Positions 4,459 through 19,332 of a DNA stretch of 19,332 bases are shown here, piece by piece. The notes under the pieces were generated by a model, which searched no databases, was not told the origin of the DNA, and saw only the letters and a list, made by a program, of their open reading frames with translations. Position 1 is the first letter of the stretch. Each line of letters opens with the position of its first letter. The stretch comes from Bacteroidales bacterium (lineage in GTDB: Bacteria > Bacteroidota > Bacteroidia > Bacteroidales > UBA932), in the NCBI GenBank assembly GCA_017617475.1, contig JAFZWC010000041.1, positions 1 through 19,332 of the forward strand. Direction: 5' to 3'. Made by a program: the position numbers and the translations under genes.

Positions 4459-4590
<132 letters not shown>

Positions 4591-4769: not shown

Positions 4770-4776
4770 CGGTGTT

Positions 4777-5091
4777 ATGAAGTTGATTCGTCGTAATATG
4801 GCGCAAATTGTGGCTTTGTGTGAAAAACACAAGGTACTGCAGCTATATGTGTTCGGATCCATTCTTACAAACAAATTCAATAAGGACAGCGATGTGGATT
4901 TCACGGTTGTTTTTGACCGTGATGCTCTTCCGCTTCTTGTGTATGGTGAGAATTATTTCGATTTCAAATTCGCTTTGGAGGACCTGTTGAAGCGCAATGT
5001 GGATTTGGTGGAATATAACGCCGTAAAGAATCCCTATTTCAAGGAAGAACTTGACGAAACCAAACAGCTGATTTATGGACAGGCATCTTAA
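4777..5091 (+). CDS. mntA: MntA-type minimal nucleotidyltransferase antitoxin
   Basis: Antitoxin of a type VII HEPN/MNT module. In characterised systems it neutralises HepT by AMPylating the tyrosine of its active-site motif. The 104 residues show the nucleotidyltransferase signature GS-X10-DxD (G27, S28, D39, D41) and the third carboxylate D76 in NVDLVEY, so it should be catalytically competent. The stop overlaps the start of hepT by 17 nt, indicating translational coupling. A second ATG at 4798 (MAQIVALCEK) would give 97 residues and a 5' leader of about 20 nt, and is a real alternative because the promoter lies so close to 4777. AT-richer than its neighbours, which suggests transfer. Confidence 0.85.
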   Translation: MKLIRRNMAQIVALCEKHKVLQLYVFGSILTNKFNKDSDVDFTVVFDRDALPLLVYGENYFDFKFALEDLLKRNVDLVEYNAVKNPYFKEELDETKQLIYGQAS

Positions 5092-5419
5092 AGCTCACTT
5101 ATTCGATATCGAAACGGCCATTGGAGAAGTATATTCTTTTTTTGAGCAAGTTCCGAAACGCTTTGATGAGTATCAAAAAAATTTGATGCTCAGACGTGCC
5201 ATAGAAAGAAACATCGGCATCATCGGAGAAGCCATTAATAAGCTTTTAAAAGAGAACCCCGACATTGCCATTACAAACGCCAAGGCCATAATCGCTACAC
5301 GAAACCGCGTAATTCATGATTATGCTGCCGTGACGGATGATGTCATGTGGAAAATCGTGGTAAACGATTTGCCGAAACTCAAAGAGGAAGTCTCTTTTTT
5401 GCTTTCAAATGAGGCATAA
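5075..5419 (+). CDS. hepT: HepT-type HEPN domain ribonuclease toxin
   Basis: Toxin partner of MntA; HEPN RNases of this family cleave RNA, and some studied members act on tRNA. The 114 residues are mostly helical and carry the family motif RX4HXY as R76-NRVI-H81-D-Y83. Here R and H are the catalytic residues and Y83 is the predicted AMPylation target. IGEAINKLLKENPDI and the TRNRVIHDY segment are typical of the DUF86/HepT group. It overlaps mntA by 17 nt. In the Shewanella system the order is hepT then mntA; here it is reversed. Its TAA stop runs straight into the degenerate tRNA-like sequence ending at 5464. Confidence 0.87.
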   Translation: MDRHLKAHLFDIETAIGEVYSFFEQVPKRFDEYQKNLMLRRAIERNIGIIGEAINKLLKENPDIAITNAKAIIATRNRVIHDYAAVTDDVMWKIVVNDLPKLKEEVSFLLSNEA

Positions 5420-5467: not shown

Positions 5468-7078
<1,611 letters not shown>

Positions 7079-7101
7079 TTAAGCAGTTTGATAACGGGAC
7101 A

Positions 7102-7132
7102 CAAAATTAACACGAATCTCGGGAATAGACAA
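7102..7132 (-). promoter_or_regulatory. Promoter of pyrG
   Basis: On the minus strand TTG (7132-7130), 20 nt, then TAATTTTG (7109-7102), close to the Bacteroidetes TTTG-N19-TAnnTTTG pattern. The predicted leader before the ATG is about 20-25 nt. Confidence 0.7.
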
Positions 7133-7144
7133 GAAAAAATTCGC

Positions 7145-7152
7145 TATCTTTG
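7145..7152 (+). promoter_or_regulatory. -7 promoter element of upp
   Basis: TATCTTTG is a perfect -7 element 24 nt before the upp ATG; no good -33 TTTG at the usual spacing. It lies back to back with the pyrG promoter, about 13 nt beyond that promoter's -33 box, so the two polymerases could interfere. Confidence 0.7.
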
Positions 7153-7176
7153 TGTAATCAAAAACCTAATACTGAT

Positions 7177-7806
7177 ATGAGCCAACTGCACGTGATTAAC
7201 CACCCCATGATTCAGCACAAGCTGACCATCATGCGTGATAAGGAAACCGGATCCAAAGATTTCCGTGAACTGTTAAAGGAAATTTCCCTTCTGATGGGCT
7301 ATGAGGTAACCCGGGACATCCCGCTGATGGACGTGGATATTGAAACCCCCATCTGCAAGATGAAAGCCAAGATGGTCAATGGCCGAAAGCTGGCCATCGT
7401 TCCCATTCTGCGTGCCGGTCTGGGTATGGTGGAAGGTCTTCACGAACTGGTGCCCGTGGGTAAGGTGGGCCATATCGGCCTGTATCGCAACGAAGAAACC
7501 CACACTCCCGTGGTGTACTACTGCAAGTTGCCGGAAGATATCCAGGACCGTCTGGTCATTGTGACGGATCCCATGCTGGCCACCGGCGGCAGCGCCTGTG
7601 ACGCTCTGTCCATGCTCAAGGAGCGCGGCTGCACCAACATCCGACTCATGTGCCTGGTGGGCGTACCGGAGGGTATCCGGCGTGTCCAGAAAGAGCATCC
7701 GGACGTAGACATCTACCTGGCTGCCGTAGACGACCACCTGAACGAGAACGCCTACATCGTCCCCGGCCTGGGAGACGCGGGAGACCGTATTTTCGGAACG
7801 AAATAA
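7177..7806 (+). CDS. upp: Uracil phosphoribosyltransferase
   Basis: Salvages uracil with PRPP to give UMP in the cytoplasm. The 209 residues match the usual family length. The PRPP-binding loop [14 protein letters not shown] starts at D131, and the uracil-binding end reads [15 protein letters not shown]. The ATG at 7177 follows a perfect -7 element by 24 nt and gives the conserved N-terminus [17 protein letters not shown]; upstream in-frame codons overlap the promoter. Divergent pyrG places de novo and salvage synthesis of pyrimidine nucleotides side by side. A strong terminator lies about 75 nt downstream, after a GC-rich repeat. Confidence 0.97.
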
Positions 7807-13070: not shown

Positions 13071-15473
13071 CTAATCATTATTCAGTTCCGGGATGTCGAT
13101 GGGGCGCTCGCGGGTGTCGCCTATGAGCCAGCGGGAGTACCAGTCGGCCATCTTCCAGAAGAAATACTCGTTCATGTCTCCGAAGCCGTGGCGCTGGCCG
13201 GGGAGGATCACCAGTTCGAAGCGCTTGTTGGCCTTGATGAGGTCGTTCACCACGCGGATGGTGTTGGCGGGGTTCACGTTGTTGTCCTGGTCTCCGTGCA
13301 CCAGCATCAGGTGACCCTTGAGGCGGGAGGCAATCTCCTGGTTGGTCTTGATGCTGTAGACAAACGAGGTGTCTCCCTTGGAAACCTTCTCCTGGATGCC
13401 GTGGTGCTGTTCGCTCCACCAGCGGTTGTAGATGCTGTTGTCGTGGTTGCCGGCGCAGGAGACGGCGGCTTTGAAGAAGTCGTTGTACTGAAGGATGGCG
13501 GCCGTGGACATGAATCCGCCGCCGGAGTGGCCGTGGATGCCCACGCGGTCCAGGTCTATCCATTTGTAACGTGCACCCAGTTGCTGGATGGCGTACTTCT
13601 GATCTTCCAGGCCGTAGTCCCGCAGGTTGCCGTAGCCGTAGTTATGATACCACTTGGAGCGGTTGGGATGGCCGCCGCGGTTGCCTACGGTAACCACAAT
13701 CATGCCCAGCTGGGCCAGGCGGTCGGTGCGCAGGTTGAAGCGCCAGGAGATGTCGTTGGCTTCCACCTGCGGGCCGGGATAAACGTAATCGGCAATGGGA
13801 TATACCTTGGTGGAATCGAAGTCGAAGGGCTTGTGCAACTCTCCCCACAAGTCGGTGATGCCGTCGGCCGCCTTGACCTTGAAGCGCTCCGGGAATTTGT
13901 AGCCGGCCTCCAGGAGGCGGGAGAAATCGGCCTCTTCCAGGTGGGTGCGCTTGCCCGTGGCGGTGTTCACCAGCATCACGGCGGGCTTGTAGTCTACGCG
14001 GGAGTAGTTGGCTACGATGTACTTGCCGTCAAAGGAAGAGGTGGCCAGCACGTCCATGTCTTCCATGTCCAGCTGCACCATGGGACCGCCCGCGAGCGGA
14101 ACGCGGTAGTTGTGCATCTGGTAGGGGTTCTCGTTGGGATTCACTCCGCAGGCGCTTACCACCAGGTAACTGGCGGTAACGCCCAGCACGTCTTCCACAT
14201 GGAAGGAGCCCTCGGTGAGGTTTTTCTTGAGGGTGCCGTCGGCCCCGTACAAATATAGGTTGGCCCAGCCGTTACGCTCGCTCCACCAGACAAAGTCTCC
14301 GTTGGGGAGGAACTTGGGGTCGCGGGTTTCCACGTAGGTGTTCATGCGTTCGCCCACGATGGTGCGGGTGCTGTCTGCTCCGACGTCCACGCGGCACAGG
14401 TCCCAGCGCTTGAGGTCGCGGCTGCCGCGGAGCATGTAGAAGCCCTTTTCGTCGCCCAGCCATTTGGAACAATGGTAGTCTTTATACTGGTCGGCAGGGG
14501 TGGGTTCGGCCGACAGGATGCTGCCGTCCTGGTCCTTGAAGGCGTTCCAGGCCACTTTCTGCACCTTGCCGTCCAGGTCCAGGATGCACAGCTCTCCCTT
14601 GGGGCCGGGTTCTCCGGGCATCTGGTAATGATAGGCTTCCAGTTCCGGACGGGGCTTGGCTATGGAATTGATGACCCACAGTTCCTTGACCATGCTCATG
14701 TCCCAGCGGATGATGGCCAGATGCTTGCCGTCGGGGGCCCAGCTCACACCGGCAAAGCGGCGGGCGGTGGTATCGGCCTCCATGTCACCCGTGTAATTGT
14801 CTCCGTTCCAGGAGAAGTCCTTGGTGCCGTCCGTGGTGAGGGCGCGCTCCACCAGGGTGCTGTCCTTGTCGTCTTTGGCGGCCTTGGCCAGGTTCTCCTT
14901 GTCCATCACCCACAGGTTGTGGTTCTTCAGGTAGACGCCCATGCTGCCGTCCGGGCTCACGTTGGCCCAGCGGGGATACTCGTCCTTGTGCTCCTCGGTA
15001 TCCCAGGTGAGCTTGCCGGTGGCTATGTCATAATAGAAACGGTACTCCACGAACTTGCCGGTGGTGTTGCCGGCGCTGTCCCGCTTCTCCGTCTTGCTCT
15101 TCATGTCCCACTGGAAGGTTTTGTCTTCCTTCAGTTCCAGCCGCAGCGGCAGGTGCTGGGCGTCGTAGGGGTCGTGGGTGATCTCCGTAATCTGGCGGGC
15201 CAGTTTGGCCATGTCAAAGACTTCGGTCTTGACGCCGGTAGCGGGGTCCACAATGAAATAACGGGTGCCTTCGGCCGTTTTCCAACTGTACCAGAATTTA
15301 TCTGAATACTGGAACCAGTTGGGACGGATGCGGGTGCTGTACACCAGGTTCTGCAGCTTCTTGGTGCTGAAGCGGGCTGCCTGTTCGTAATTGGCTTTTT
15401 GGGGGGCATGTTTCTGACCCCAGGCGGCCGCAGTCAGAAGCACCAGGGCGCCCATCAGGAGAAATCTCTTCAT
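13071..15473 (-). CDS. Secreted S9 family peptidase (dipeptidyl peptidase IV-like)
   Basis: Periplasmic or surface serine peptidase of 800 residues that would cut dipeptides, typically after proline, from peptide N-termini. The signal peptide is MKRFLLMGALVLLTAAAWGQ. Residues about 80-500 are the DPPIV_N beta-propeller (repeated WAPDGKHLAIIRW-like and SPDG blades). The alpha/beta hydrolase domain carries S650 in GHSGGG, D730 in HGDQDNNV and H762 in GQRHGFG, a complete triad. The start at 15473 is chosen because it begins the signal peptide; upstream in-frame codons run through the promoter region. Divergent from the phosphatase-GH2 gene, sharing a palindromic promoter region. Confidence 0.93.
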   Translation of the reverse strand: MKRFLLMGALVLLTAAAWGQKHAPQKANYEQAARFSTKKLQNLVYSTRIRPNWFQYSDKFWYSWKTAEGTRYFIVDPATGVKTEVFDMAKLARQITEITHDPYDAQHLPLRLELKEDKTFQWDMKSKTEKRDSAGNTTGKFVEYRFYYDIATGKLTWDTEEHKDEYPRWANVSPDGSMGVYLKNHNLWVMDKENLAKAAKDDKDSTLVERALTTDGTKDFSWNGDNYTGDMEADTTARRFAGVSWAPDGKHLAIIRWDMSMVKELWVINSIAKPRPELEAYHYQMPGEPGPKGELCILDLDGKVQKVAWNAFKDQDGSILSAEPTPADQYKDYHCSKWLGDEKGFYMLRGSRDLKRWDLCRVDVGADSTRTIVGERMNTYVETRDPKFLPNGDFVWWSERNGWANLYLYGADGTLKKNLTEGSFHVEDVLGVTASYLVVSACGVNPNENPYQMHNYRVPLAGGPMVQLDMEDMDVLATSSFDGKYIVANYSRVDYKPAVMLVNTATGKRTHLEEADFSRLLEAGYKFPERFKVKAADGITDLWGELHKPFDFDSTKVYPIADYVYPGPQVEANDISWRFNLRTDRLAQLGMIVVTVGNRGGHPNRSKWYHNYGYGNLRDYGLEDQKYAIQQLGARYKWIDLDRVGIHGHSGGGFMSTAAILQYNDFFKAAVSCAGNHDNSIYNRWWSEQHHGIQEKVSKGDTSFVYSIKTNQEIASRLKGHLMLVHGDQDNNVNPANTIRVVNDLIKANKRFELVILPGQRHGFGDMNEYFFWKMADWYSRWLIGDTRERPIDIPELNND

Positions 15474-15502
15474 AACACGAAAAATACACGAACTTATATA
15501 GG

Positions 15503-15532
15503 GCGAAGATAACAAAAAAAAGCTATCTTCGC
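15503..15532. promoter_or_regulatory. Palindromic divergent promoter region of the S9 peptidase and the phosphatase-GH2 fusion
   Basis: GCGAAGATA (15503-15511) and TATCTTCGC (15524-15532) are perfect 9-bp arms around a 12-nt A-rich spacer. Each arm contains TATCTTCG, one base from the TAnnTTTG -7 consensus, reading outward toward each gene: 21 nt before the plus ATG and 30 nt before the minus ATG. On the minus strand TTG (15534-15532) lies 20 nt upstream of its -7 box, a proper -33 spacing. Overlapping divergent promoters or an operator are both possible. Confidence 0.6.
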
Positions 15533-15552
15533 AAGGACAGAACATTACGCCG

Positions 15553-18500
15553 ATGAAAAAGATCATTTCCCTGTTGGGAGCCTTGTTATTCAGCTTCTCT
15601 CTGGCTTGGGCGGGTACGCCCCGCAGTACCCGGGACAGCCTTTCGGCCGACGGGCCTTATATCCTTTACCGCCCCGCCGGGGTGGAAGTCATCACGGTCG
15701 ATGTAAAGGGTTCCATTTCCCGGCGGCAGTTCCCGCAATTGCCGGAAGGCTACCGTTTCCTGGTTACCGACCACCGCGGGCAATACCCCTTCGAGGTGAG
15801 CCTGAGGCCGGTGGCGCGCTCGGCGTGGAAAGAGGAGGAGGTGCCGGCGCGCACCTTCGTGATGTCGGACCCGCATGGCCGTCTGGACTGCGTGATAGAC
15901 CTTCTGCAGGGCAACCGGGTCATTGACGGCGGTCTGCACTGGGCATACGGCACCGACCGCCTGGTGGTCATTGGAGACATCACCGACCGCGGCAAAGACG
16001 CCACAGCCATCTACTGGTTTTTCTACAAGCTGCAGCAGGAAGCGGCCGATGCCGGAGGCGAGGTTGTTATGCTCCTGGGTAATCACGAGCCCATGGAGTT
16101 TGCCTCAGACATGCGCTATGCCGAAGACAAATACAAGATTCTGGCGCGGGAGCTGGGGATGGCGTACGCCGATTTGATCGGCCCGGATTCTGAGCTGGGC
16201 CGATGGATAGCCACCTGGAATACGATGAGCATCCTGGGCCGAGACCTGTACGTACACGCGGGCATCGGCAAAGATTTCTACGACTGGAACCTGCCCATCC
16301 CGGAAGTCAACGCAAAGGTCAGCCGGGCCCTCTTCAAGTTAAAGGGGGGCCGGAAGGCTGTCGGCGACACGGCGGCCTTCCTCCACGGGTCTTACGGCCC
16401 CCTCTGGTACCGGGGTCTGGTAAGCAAGGAGGCCAAGCGCCGGCCCGTCTCGACTGACACGCTGGACCTTATCCGCGCGCGGTATGAGGTGGAGCACATT
16501 ATCGTGGGCCATACCATCTTCCCTGACGTGAGTACCTTCTACGACGGCCGGGTCATCGACGTGAATGTGAACAATCCCCTAAACCGCAAGAAACACCGCA
16601 CCCGGGCTCTCCTCATAGACAAGGGCCACTACTTCGCCGTGACGGACCGCGGCAAGCGCAAGGAGCTTCCCACCCCCGTTCCCGCCCCTGTTCTGCCGGC
16701 GGGCCGGCAATCCTGGAACGCAGACTGGACTTTTACCAAAGACGGCGAGAGCCGGGTATTGACCCTTCCGCACGACTGGGGCGTAGAGCAGCCCTTCCTG
16801 CAGGAGAACCCCGGAGAAACCGGCAAGCTGGCCTGGTGGGGGCAGGCAACTTATGCTAAAACCCTCACCGTCGGGTCCGAAGACCTGTCTCACAGGCTGC
16901 GCCTGGAGGTGGACGGCGCCTTCTCCAACGCCAGGGTGTATGTGAACGGTGCCGAGGCCGGCGGCTGGCCTTACGGCTACGCCTCCTGGGCTGTGGAACT
17001 GAATCCCTGGCTCCGGGAAGGGGATAACCTCATAGAAATCAAACTGGACAACAAGGAGGAAAGCTCCCGCTGGTATCCCGGCGGCGGCATCTACCGCAAC
17101 GTCTGGCTCACCCGCACGGCGCCTACGTCGGTGGCCCACTGGGGCACGTTCGTAAAGGCCGACGCCTCGGGAAAGGTCTCCGTGGAGATAACCTTCAGGA
17201 CGGACAAGCCCGTGCTGGGCAAGGTAACCACCTACATCCTGGGAACATCGGCCGAAGTTGTGACGGAAGGGCCGCTCAATGACGGCAGCGTGCTCACCCA
17301 GACCCTGTCGGTAGAGAATCCCAGGCTCTGGTCTCCGGACACCCCGTCTCTCTACGTGGCCCGCACAACGGTGGAAACGGTCGACGGAACAGACGTTTAT
17401 GACACACCCTTCGGCTTCCGCGACGCACAGTGGCGGGCCGACGGCTTTTACTTGAACGGAGAGAAGACCTTCCTCAAGGGCGTGTGCCTGCACCACGACG
17501 CGGGGGTGCTGGGTGCCGTGTGGAACGACGACGCCTGGGAGCGCCGGTTTACCATGCTCAAGGCTATGGGCTGCAACGCCATCCGTACCAGCCACAATCC
17601 GCCGGCTCCGGAGTTCCTGGATTTGTGCGACCGCATGGGCTTCCTGGTGCTGGACGAGCTCACGGACACCTGGACCTGGCCCAAGAAAGACAACGGATAC
17701 GCCACTTTGTTTGACGAATGGGCCGAAAAGGACCTGGTGGCCATGATCCACCGGGACCGCAACCACCCCAGCGTGATTGCCTGGAGTATCGGCAACGAAT
17801 GCGGGGAGCAGGGAGACAGCACCCGCTGGTGGATTCCCCAAATGCTCACGGACATCTGTCACCGCGAGGACCCCACGCGTCCCACCACCGCCGGCAACGA
17901 TAACCCCGGTGCGGCCTTTACGGGTTATGCCTCCACCATAGATGTTTATGGCTTCAATTACAAGCCGCATTCCTATGCCCGCTTCCGGGACACGCACCCC
18001 GGCCAGCCTGTCTACGGTTCCGAAACGGCATCCTGCATCTCTACGCGCGGGTATTACCGCTTCCCGGTAGAACAGGAAAAGGGGAAGGGCTGGACCATGG
18101 AAGCACCTTTCCAGGTAAGTTCCTACGACCTCTACGCCCCCGGCTGGGCCTCCAAGCCGGATTATGAGTGGAAGTATGAGGACGAGGTGCCCGAGTGTGC
18201 CGGTGAGTTCGTCTGGACGGGTTATGACTATCTGGGCGAGCCCACGCCTTTCAACATGGACCCCTCCGTCCTCACCAATTTCCATACGGAGGAGGAGCGC
18301 GAGGCCTTCAAGAGAATGGTGGCCGGTTGGGGCCAGGCCATTGCCGATGTCCCGCTGCCCAGCCGCAGCAGCTATTTCGGCATCATAGATTTGGCAGGCT
18401 TCCCCAAGGACCGTTACTGGCTGTATCAGAGCCGATGGGCGCCTGAGGTGCCGTCGGCCCATATCCTGCCGCACTGGACCTGGCCCGGCCGCGAAGGCCA

Positions 18501-19002
18501 GGTGACGCCCGTGCACGTGTACACTTCCGGCGATGAGGCCGAGCTGTTTGTGAATGGGAAATCCCAGGGCCGAAAGTCCCGTGACGGGTATCGCTTTGTC
18601 TGGGACGGCGTGGTCTATGAACCCGGCACCGTTGAGGTGATTGTGTATAAGAACGGTAGCGAGTGGGCCCGCGAGCAGGTGCGTACGGCTGGAAAGGCCT
18701 CTACGCTGGCAGCTTCGGTAGATTACTCCGGCGAGGACCTTACCTATATAACTGTTGACGTGCTGGACAAGAAGGGTATCCTGGTGCCCGACGCTGACAA
18801 CCTGCTTTCCTTCAGCGTCCAGGGTCCGGCCTGCATCATCGGCACCGACGCCGGCGACCCTACGTCCCACGTTCCCCTCTACAGCCCCGAGCTTCCCGCC
18901 TTCCACGGGAAAGCATCGGCCGTTATCCGCCGCACAGGGGAGGGTCCCGTCAAGGTTATCTGCAAGTCAAAAGGGCTTAAAACCACGAAAATCACGCTGT
19001 AA
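15553..19002 (+). CDS. Exported fusion: Shewanella-like PPP metallophosphatase + GH2 glycosidase
   Basis: One uninterrupted frame of 1149 residues. Residues 1-20 are a signal peptide (MKKIISLLGALLFSFSLAWAG). Residues about 95-370 are a calcineurin-like PPP phosphatase resembling bacterial Shelph enzymes: D106-P-H-G, GDITDRG (141-147), GNHE (176-179), VHAG (234-237), GHT (319-321), so all metal and phosphate ligands are present. A Pro-rich linker (373-384, PTPVPAPVLPAG) leads to a full GH2 enzyme. This has a sugar-binding domain from W388 with LPHDWGVEQPF and WYPGGGIYRNVW, an Ig-like domain, then a TIM barrel from about 640 with TSHNPP, acid/base E749 (WSIGNEC) and nucleophile E824 (GSETAS). 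C-terminal Ig-like domains follow (about 975-1149; VHVYTSGDEAELFVNGKSQGR is DUF4982-like). Beta-galactosidase is the likeliest GH2 activity. The phosphatase substrate is unknown. Confidence 0.9.
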   Translation: MKKIISLLGALLFSFSLAWAGTPRSTRDSLSADGPYILYRPAGVEVITVDVKGSISRRQFPQLPEGYRFLVTDHRGQYPFEVSLRPVARSAWKEEEVPARTFVMSDPHGRLDCVIDLLQGNRVIDGGLHWAYGTDRLVVIGDITDRGKDATAIYWFFYKLQQEAADAGGEVVMLLGNHEPMEFASDMRYAEDKYKILARELGMAYADLIGPDSELGRWIATWNTMSILGRDLYVHAGIGKDFYDWNLPIPEVNAKVSRALFKLKGGRKAVGDTAAFLHGSYGPLWYRGLVSKEAKRRPVSTDTLDLIRARYEVEHIIVGHTIFPDVSTFYDGRVIDVNVNNPLNRKKHRTRALLIDKGHYFAVTDRGKRKELPTPVPAPVLPAGRQSWNADWTFTKDGESRVLTLPHDWGVEQPFLQENPGETGKLAWWGQATYAKTLTVGSEDLSHRLRLEVDGAFSNARVYVNGAEAGGWPYGYASWAVELNPWLREGDNLIEIKLDNKEESSRWYPGGGIYRNVWLTRTAPTSVAHWGTFVKADASGKVSVEITFRTDKPVLGKVTTYILGTSAEVVTEGPLNDGSVLTQTLSVENPRLWSPDTPSLYVARTTVETVDGTDVYDTPFGFRDAQWRADGFYLNGEKTFLKGVCLHHDAGVLGAVWNDDAWERRFTMLKAMGCNAIRTSHNPPAPEFLDLCDRMGFLVLDELTDTWTWPKKDNGYATLFDEWAEKDLVAMIHRDRNHPSVIAWSIGNECGEQGDSTRWWIPQMLTDICHREDPTRPTTAGNDNPGAAFTGYASTIDVYGFNYKPHSYARFRDTHPGQPVYGSETASCISTRGYYRFPVEQEKGKGWTMEAPFQVSSYDLYAPGWASKPDYEWKYEDEVPECAGEFVWTGYDYLGEPTPFNMDPSVLTNFHTEEEREAFKRMVAGWGQAIADVPLPSRSSYFGIIDLAGFPKDRYWLYQSRWAPEVPSAHILPHWTWPGREGQVTPVHVYTSGDEAELFVNGKSQGRKSRDGYRFVWDGVVYEPGTVEVIVYKNGSEWAREQVRTAGKASTLAASVDYSGEDLTYITVDVLDKKGILVPDADNLLSFSVQGPACIIGTDAGDPTSHVPLYSPELPAFHGKASAVIRRTGEGPVKVICKSKGLKTTKITL

Positions 19003-19129: not shown

Positions 19130-19332
19130 ATGCCTACAATTCAACAACTTGTCCGTAAAGGACGCGAGCAGCTCGAAATCAAGAGCAAGTCTCGTGCGTT
19201 GGATGCATGCCCTCAGAAGCGTGGCGTATGTCTGCGTGTTTACACCACTACGCCTAAGAAGCCGAACTCCGCTATGCGTAAGGTAGCCCGTGTTCGTCTT
19301 TCCAACGCCAAAGAGGTCAATGCCTACATCCC
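19130..19332 (+). CDS. rpsL: 30S ribosomal protein S12, N-terminal part
   Basis: Cut by the right edge after 67 codons. [14 protein letters not shown] and [33 protein letters not shown] are unmistakable S12, a decoding-centre protein of the small subunit. K43 in TPKKPNSA, the classic streptomycin-resistance position, is the wild-type lysine. Start 19130 is the first ATG after the promoter and structured leader, with the AT-rich upstream typical of Bacteroidota. Normally followed by rpsG and fusA, outside the window. Confidence 0.96.

What the first reader, a model, noticed from the sequence alone, without database searches (positions are those of the whole stretch)
15553..19002. In-frame fusion of a secreted PPP-type metallophosphatase to a complete GH2 glycosidase
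Seen: one open frame with a single signal peptide, all phosphatase motifs (DPHG, GDxxDRG, GNHE, VHAG, GHT), a Pro-rich linker at 16669-16704, and both GH2 catalytic glutamates. Known: both families are common in Bacteroidota as separate exported enzymes. Inference: the fusion couples dephosphorylation and glycoside hydrolysis in one periplasmic protein, perhaps on phosphorylated glycans or glycolipids. I am not aware of this architecture being described. A deletion that merged two neighbouring genes is the main alternative, since the GH2 part has lost its own signal peptide.
Basis: partly seen in the sequence, partly recalled or inferred. Interest (0 to 1): 0.8.

Follow-up and report, generated by a model that had tools for sequence, protein, structure and literature searches.

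The report
Exported phosphatase fused to a β-galactosidase
A relative of rumen Bacteroidales encodes one exported protein that looks like a phosphatase in its first third and a β-galactosidase in the rest; a second lineage carries the same joint, and other relatives still have the two genes side by side.

Summary
Observation confirmed: 15553-19002 is one open frame (1149 aa) with one N-terminal signal peptide, a Metallophos domain and a complete GH2 enzyme. It is not an assembly slip: P0001 (1164 aa, 79% over the full length, another contig) has the same order and a like Pro-rich linker. In L006 and L041 the two genes stand apart: the phosphatase ends in TAA and 11 bases later galB starts with its own signal peptide, so fusion removed stop, spacer, start codon and signal peptide. 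The phosphatase is closest to the Shewanella cold-active PPP phosphatase, the GH2 part to BuGH2A and GalB. The gene is a mosaic: phosphatase parts of window and P0001 are sisters, their GH2 parts from aa 634 on are not (p-AU 0.0005), which suggests recombination among galB alleles. The architecture is rare: P0001 is the only one of 15 long proteins with this phosphatase that has GH2. Others join it to an unnamed 500-aa domain, SusD or S9 peptidases. I read it as a bifunctional periplasmic enzyme; both activities and any substrate coupling are untested.

The parts
15553..19002 (+). fusion gene, 1149 aa: exported PPP-type phosphatase + GH2 beta-galactosidase
   Evidence: full-length homologue P0001
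15553..15612 (+). signal peptide (MKKIISLLGALLFSFSLAWA), the only one seen
   Evidence: read by eye; helix 2-15 in the model
15628..16665 (+). phosphatase part (about aa 26-371), Metallophos domain aa 100-321
   Evidence: tree
16666..16701 (+). Pro-rich linker LPTPVPAPVLPA (aa 372-383), at the place where two-gene relatives have stop codon, spacer, start codon and signal peptide
   Evidence: pLDDT under 50 at aa 373-381
16702..18999 (+). GH2 part (aa 384-1149), with E749 and E824
13071..15566 (-). divergent S9 (DPP IV type) peptidase gene; divergent neighbour also in L001-L006 and L164. The mechanical ORF start overlaps the fusion gene; the true start is probably further in
19130..19332 (+). 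start of rpsL (ribosomal protein S12), cut by the window end; downstream neighbour also in L001-L005 and L114
   Evidence: Pfam PF00164

Best explanation
A real, inherited gene fusion that yields one exported bifunctional enzyme. The N-terminal third is a PPP-type, metal-dependent phosphatase of the Shewanella-like kind; the rest is a retaining GH2 beta-galactosidase of the GalB kind; a short Pro-rich linker joins them, so one signal peptide exports both at 1:1. Shown: one frame, both sets of motifs, the same fusion in a second lineage, separate neighbouring genes in other relatives. Inferred: the fusion arose once, by loss of the phosphatase stop, the spacer, the galB start and its signal peptide, and galB bodies were then exchanged by recombination. 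Inferred and untested: both halves are active in the periplasm, each on its own ester or galactoside; co-processing of phosphorylated galactosides is possible.
For:: frame, domains, motifs. P0001, 79% over 100% of the query, cluster of 5 member sequences; linkers ELPTPVPAPVLPAGRQ (window) and ELPAPVPTSLVPAGRQ (P0001); two-gene state in L006 and L041; phosphatase parts of window and P0001 are sisters, SH-aLRT 100; for GH2 aa 384-533 a window+P0001 clade is allowed (held tree 7.88 lnL better, p-AU 0.651); for aa 634-1149 it is rejected (p-AU 0.00055), and window joins the unfused P0002 (100); against L006, dN 0.170 and dS 0.832 (phosphatase), dN 0.133 and dS 0.847 (GH2); closest solved relatives 1V73 and 5T98/5T99; both domains modelled with long stretches of high confidence, linker low.
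Against: The fused state is patchy: P0002, nearest in the GH2 C-terminal part, is unfused. No GH2 fusion was seen in the 72 of 80 GH2 loci with at least 1.3 kb upstream, nor in the listed matches of 398 and 400 genomes (lists cut, at most 2 candidates scored per genome, samples overlap). For GH2 aa 384-533 the free quick tree puts window with P0002 (support 44), and for aa 384-633 also with P0002 (88) and P0001 elsewhere, so a shared fused front reaches at most about aa 533. dN/dS covers the time before fusion too. The model is moderate (mean pLDDT 75.0, pTM 0.63). No DNA is held for P0001 or P0002.
Confidence: 0.78

Rival explanations
1. Assembly or frameshift artefact that joined two neighbouring genes in this contig only.
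For: The two genes are neighbours in L006 and L041.
Against: P0001 is a different sequence (79%) from another contig, with the same junction and a like linker; the linker is a Pro-rich stretch, not a leftover signal peptide.
Confidence: 0.03
2. Near-neutral fusion: two exported hydrolases share a signal peptide by accident and work independently.
For: Rare, with unfused close kin. The locus also loses either gene: galB is cut to 145 aa in L114/L164, the phosphatase to a 38-residue scrap in L022. In 13 of 20 fetched phosphatase regions none of the partner types was recognised (their neighbours were not all scanned).
Against: The phosphatase part is shared by two lineages with different GH2 bodies; the same phosphatase is fused or adjacent to carbohydrate-type genes in other loci.
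Confidence: 0.45
3. Two independent fusions (window and P0001) with similar linkers.
For: The GH2 parts belong to different clades.
Against: The phosphatase parts are sisters (100) and the linkers are alike; recombination within galB explains both.
Confidence: 0.12

Closest known systems
Shewanella-like PPP phosphatases (Shelphs; psychrophilic phosphatase I, PDB 1V73, 2Z72, 2ZBM)
   Same: The only 3 solved sequences found at E 0.001 (1V73: 7.4e-45); motifs of the metal site shared. The phosphatase domain of the relative P0121 matches 2Z72 and 1V73 with TMt 0.89-0.90
   Different: Here exported and fused to GH2; the first motif and the D(S/T)G motif vary
GH2 beta-galactosidase GalB (NCBIfam NF041463) and BuGH2A (PDB 5T98/5T99)
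   Same: GH2 domain set and both glutamates; best fold match 5T99, TMt 0.84
   Different: 860.6 bits, below the GalB cut-off of 900; of the 4 relatives scanned, unfused P0002, P0005 and L006 are also below it and fused P0001 is above (904.7). No signal peptide of its own
Other fusions of the same phosphatase family (P0121-P0126 with a 500-aa domain; P0127 SusD; P0128 and P0129 S9 peptidase)
   Same: Same phosphatase part in one frame with another, mostly exported-type protein
   Different: Different partners and other places on the phosphatase tree

Membership tests
Shewanella-like PPP phosphatase (Shelph) | PPP signatures GDxHG, GDxxDRG, GNH(E/D) (PMC535813, passages read) | tested here: inconclusive
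   GDITDRG 141 and GNHE 176 met; the first motif is SDPHG, where 1V73 itself has SDVHG
Shewanella-like PPP phosphatase (Shelph) | (I/L/V)D(S/T)G motif of bacterial-type PPPs | tested here: inconclusive
   IDVN at aa 335; the paper says Val or Phe replaces the S/T in most Shelphs, but the Gly is Asn here
Shewanella-like PPP phosphatase (Shelph) | groups with Shelphs rather than ApaH or other PPPs | tested here: inconclusive
   only Shewanella-type chains found in the PDB; ApaH model weak, 19.3 bits against a cut-off of 176; no tree with other PPP groups was made
Shewanella-like PPP phosphatase (Shelph) | metal-dependent phosphatase activity | not testable with these tools
   needs the protein
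Glycoside hydrolase family 2 | sugar-binding, Ig-like and TIM-barrel domains | tested here: met
   PF02837, PF00703, PF02836 above cut-offs
Glycoside hydrolase family 2 | acid/base and nucleophile glutamates | tested here: met
   E749 and E824 align with Glu of 5T98; their catalytic roles are recalled
GalB equivalog NF041463 | score of at least 900 bits | tested here: not met
   860.6 bits

The most novel reading that the evidence does not exclude
This phosphatase is a portable phosphate-removing front end that Bacteroidales repeatedly join to exported carbohydrate-active proteins (GH2 here; a 500-aa alpha/alpha-barrel-like domain and SusD elsewhere), shuffled among partners by recombination; in the GH2 case it clears phosphate from galactosides before the glycosidase cuts them in the same protein.
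Probability: 0.22. Interest if true: 0.68.

Novelty: new variant of a known kind. Interest (0 to 1): 0.45.

Why it matters
Two known enzyme families in an architecture that I found in no paper searched. Because unfused neighbours, the fused gene and mosaic copies all survive in one group, the path from neighbouring genes to one enzyme can be followed. If the halves cooperate, it points to phosphorylated galactosides as a substrate for rumen-type Bacteroidales.

Tried and rejected
Assembly artefact: rejected on P0001 and its like linker.

A fusion common to GalB: rejected. One search found 550 relatives and kept 80 loci; 72 of the 80 have at least 1.3 kb before GH2, and 2 of the 72 (L006, L041) have the phosphatase there, each as a separate gene. 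The same count on loci, in part the same genomes, gave 0 of 26 and 1 of 22, the one being L006's genome again. Of the 120 listed proteins, only P0001 carries PF00149.

One search extended some GH2 matches into the phosphatase part (L013, L039, L068). A looser search of the 3 kb before GH2 found no phosphatase there. It covered the 62 loci L001-L062 and L084-L113, so L068 was not covered. Only L022 has a 38-residue scrap.

The 500-aa partner (P0121) has no NCBIfam name and only PF00149 in Pfam; sequence hits of its free-standing relative to sugar isomerases were weak (E 0.03), and fold hits were diffuse on a low-confidence model (mean pLDDT 70.0, pTM 0.48). I call it alpha/alpha-barrel-like and no more.

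Papers: searches (2 papers listed; passages of PMC535813; no paper held the terms; 38 papers, 15 listed; 8 of 5,619 listed; 2 listed): listings and abstract starts only, none on such a fusion. Preprints and most subscription journals are not held.

Script error, mended: my rpsL query was read two bases off frame, so it found rpsL through DNA likeness only. In frame it is rpsL (PF00164), and one search finds it in L001-L005, L041, L114 and L164, and not in L006 or L022. No count rests on it. In one search, loci L138-L162 were named but not yet in the database searched.

Full report
What is there. The ORF at 15553-19002 codes for 1149 aa without a stop. Pfam finds Metallophos at aa 100-321 and five GH2-associated domains between aa 391 and 1148, all above cut-offs. 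The phosphatase motifs and two GH2 glutamates are present. The part between, aa 372-383, is Pro-rich and has pLDDT under 50 at 373-381 in the model (mean pLDDT 75.0, pTM 0.63; other low stretches lie in the phosphatase C-terminus and the TIM barrel).

Is the joint real? A search with the whole protein (7999 candidates scored, 120 listed) gave one full-length relative, P0001 (1164 aa, 79% over 100% of the query, cluster of 5 member sequences). It keeps the order and the seven motifs tested, and the linker is alike: ELPTPVPAPVLPAGRQ in the window, ELPAPVPTSLVPAGRQ in P0001. A search with the phosphatase part among proteins of similar total length gave 15 hits from 5715 candidates; only P0001 has GH2 domains.

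What it came from. In L006 and L041 the phosphatase gene (375 aa) ends with TAA, and galB begins after an 11-base spacer with a signal peptide. In L006 the order is S9 peptidase (divergent), phosphatase, galB. In L114/L164 (both genome G325) it is S9, phosphatase, a 145-aa remnant of galB that keeps signal peptide and C-terminus, then rpsL: the window's order. In L041 the phosphatase and galB lie in a different order relative to S9 and rpsL, and galB has a frameshift. L001-L005 (S9 85-94% identical to the window's) have S9, galB with signal peptide, rpsL and no phosphatase. L022 has a 38-residue phosphatase scrap between S9 and galB. So the phosphatase gene has come or gone more than once at this place; which state came first I cannot say.

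Mosaic. The phosphatase parts of window and P0001 are each other's nearest (85%, SH-aLRT 100). Their GH2 parts differ. For aa 634-1149 the window is 97% identical to the unfused P0002, and a window+P0001 clade is rejected (p-AU 0.00055). For aa 384-533 that clade is not rejected (p-AU 0.651; held tree 7.88 lnL better), though the free quick tree joins window with P0002 at support 44. For aa 384-633 window joins P0002 (88) and P0001 falls elsewhere. In 50-residue blocks, window and P0001 share 92, 84, 88% over aa 384-533 and then 36% and 62%; window and P0002 share 90, 82, 92, 68, 80% up to aa 633 and 92-100% after it. I infer at least one exchange within galB, with a possible second break near aa 634. 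It was seen on protein only.

How common. Phosphatase relatives occur in 25 of 398 genomes of the family of G001, the genome of L041. Of 80 GH2 loci kept, 72 have at least 1.3 kb upstream; 2 of these have the phosphatase, as a separate gene. No listed match spans both halves (398 genomes) or (400 genomes of the genus of G004, the genome of L001); those lists are cut, at most 2 candidates per genome were scored, and the samples overlap.

Other fusions. The same phosphatase stands in one frame with an about 500-aa domain without a Pfam match above cut-off (P0121-P0126, of which P0121 and P0124 were scanned; L169, L173, L181), with SusD (P0127) and with S9 peptidases (P0128, P0129); the rest of the 15 hits have Big_2, a Por sorting domain or no other named domain. 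L167 and L179 hold phosphatase and 500-aa gene separately and side by side, a parallel to the window's case. In L169 and L181 the next gene has GDPD and HAD-type domains. In L163 the phosphatase lies between an alpha-L-fucosidase gene and a family 43 glycosidase gene. Of 20 phosphatase regions fetched, 7 (L163, L164, L167, L169, L173, L179, L181) show such a partner; in 13 none was recognised, but their neighbours were not all scanned.

Families and function. Solved relatives are 1V73, 2ZBM and 2Z72 for the phosphatase, and 5T98 and 9BEY at the head of the GH2 list; the best Foldseek match is 5T99, BuGH2A. The listed Foldseek matches for the window's model are GH2 proteins; the phosphatase fold match comes from the related P0121 model. 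The Shewanella enzyme is named a protein-tyrosine phosphatase; PMC535813 (passages) says substrate specificity of such PPPs cannot be predicted without experiment. dN is well below dS in both halves against L006, which covers the time before fusion too. Hence: an exported phosphatase plus beta-galactosidase, substrates unknown.

Verdict. A genuine, rare domain architecture from two known families, with a clear two-gene origin; functional coupling is a hypothesis.

Noticed in passing
window 4774-5416 (+): MntA-like nucleotidyltransferase and HepT-like gene pair, probable type VII toxin-antitoxin system; both score below the NCBIfam cut-offs (50.9 and 35 against 60).
   Followed up: partly
window 4459-4531 (+): tRNA gene (Rfam) in front of the MntA/HepT pair.
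   Followed up: no
L164 278-715 (-): galB reduced to 145 aa by an in-frame internal loss that keeps signal peptide and C-terminal domain.
   Followed up: partly
L022 about 5940-7220: about 1.3 kb between S9 and galB with a phosphatase scrap (6001-6114) and filler that looks internally repetitive by eye.
   Followed up: partly
L169 7293-8798, L181 3388-4887: gene with a GDPD domain followed by a HAD-type domain, right after the phosphatase + 500-aa fusion.
   Followed up: partly
P0127: SusD-like protein with this phosphatase at its C-terminus.
   Followed up: no
L041 7140-9478: galB broken by a frameshift beside an intact phosphatase gene.
   Followed up: no
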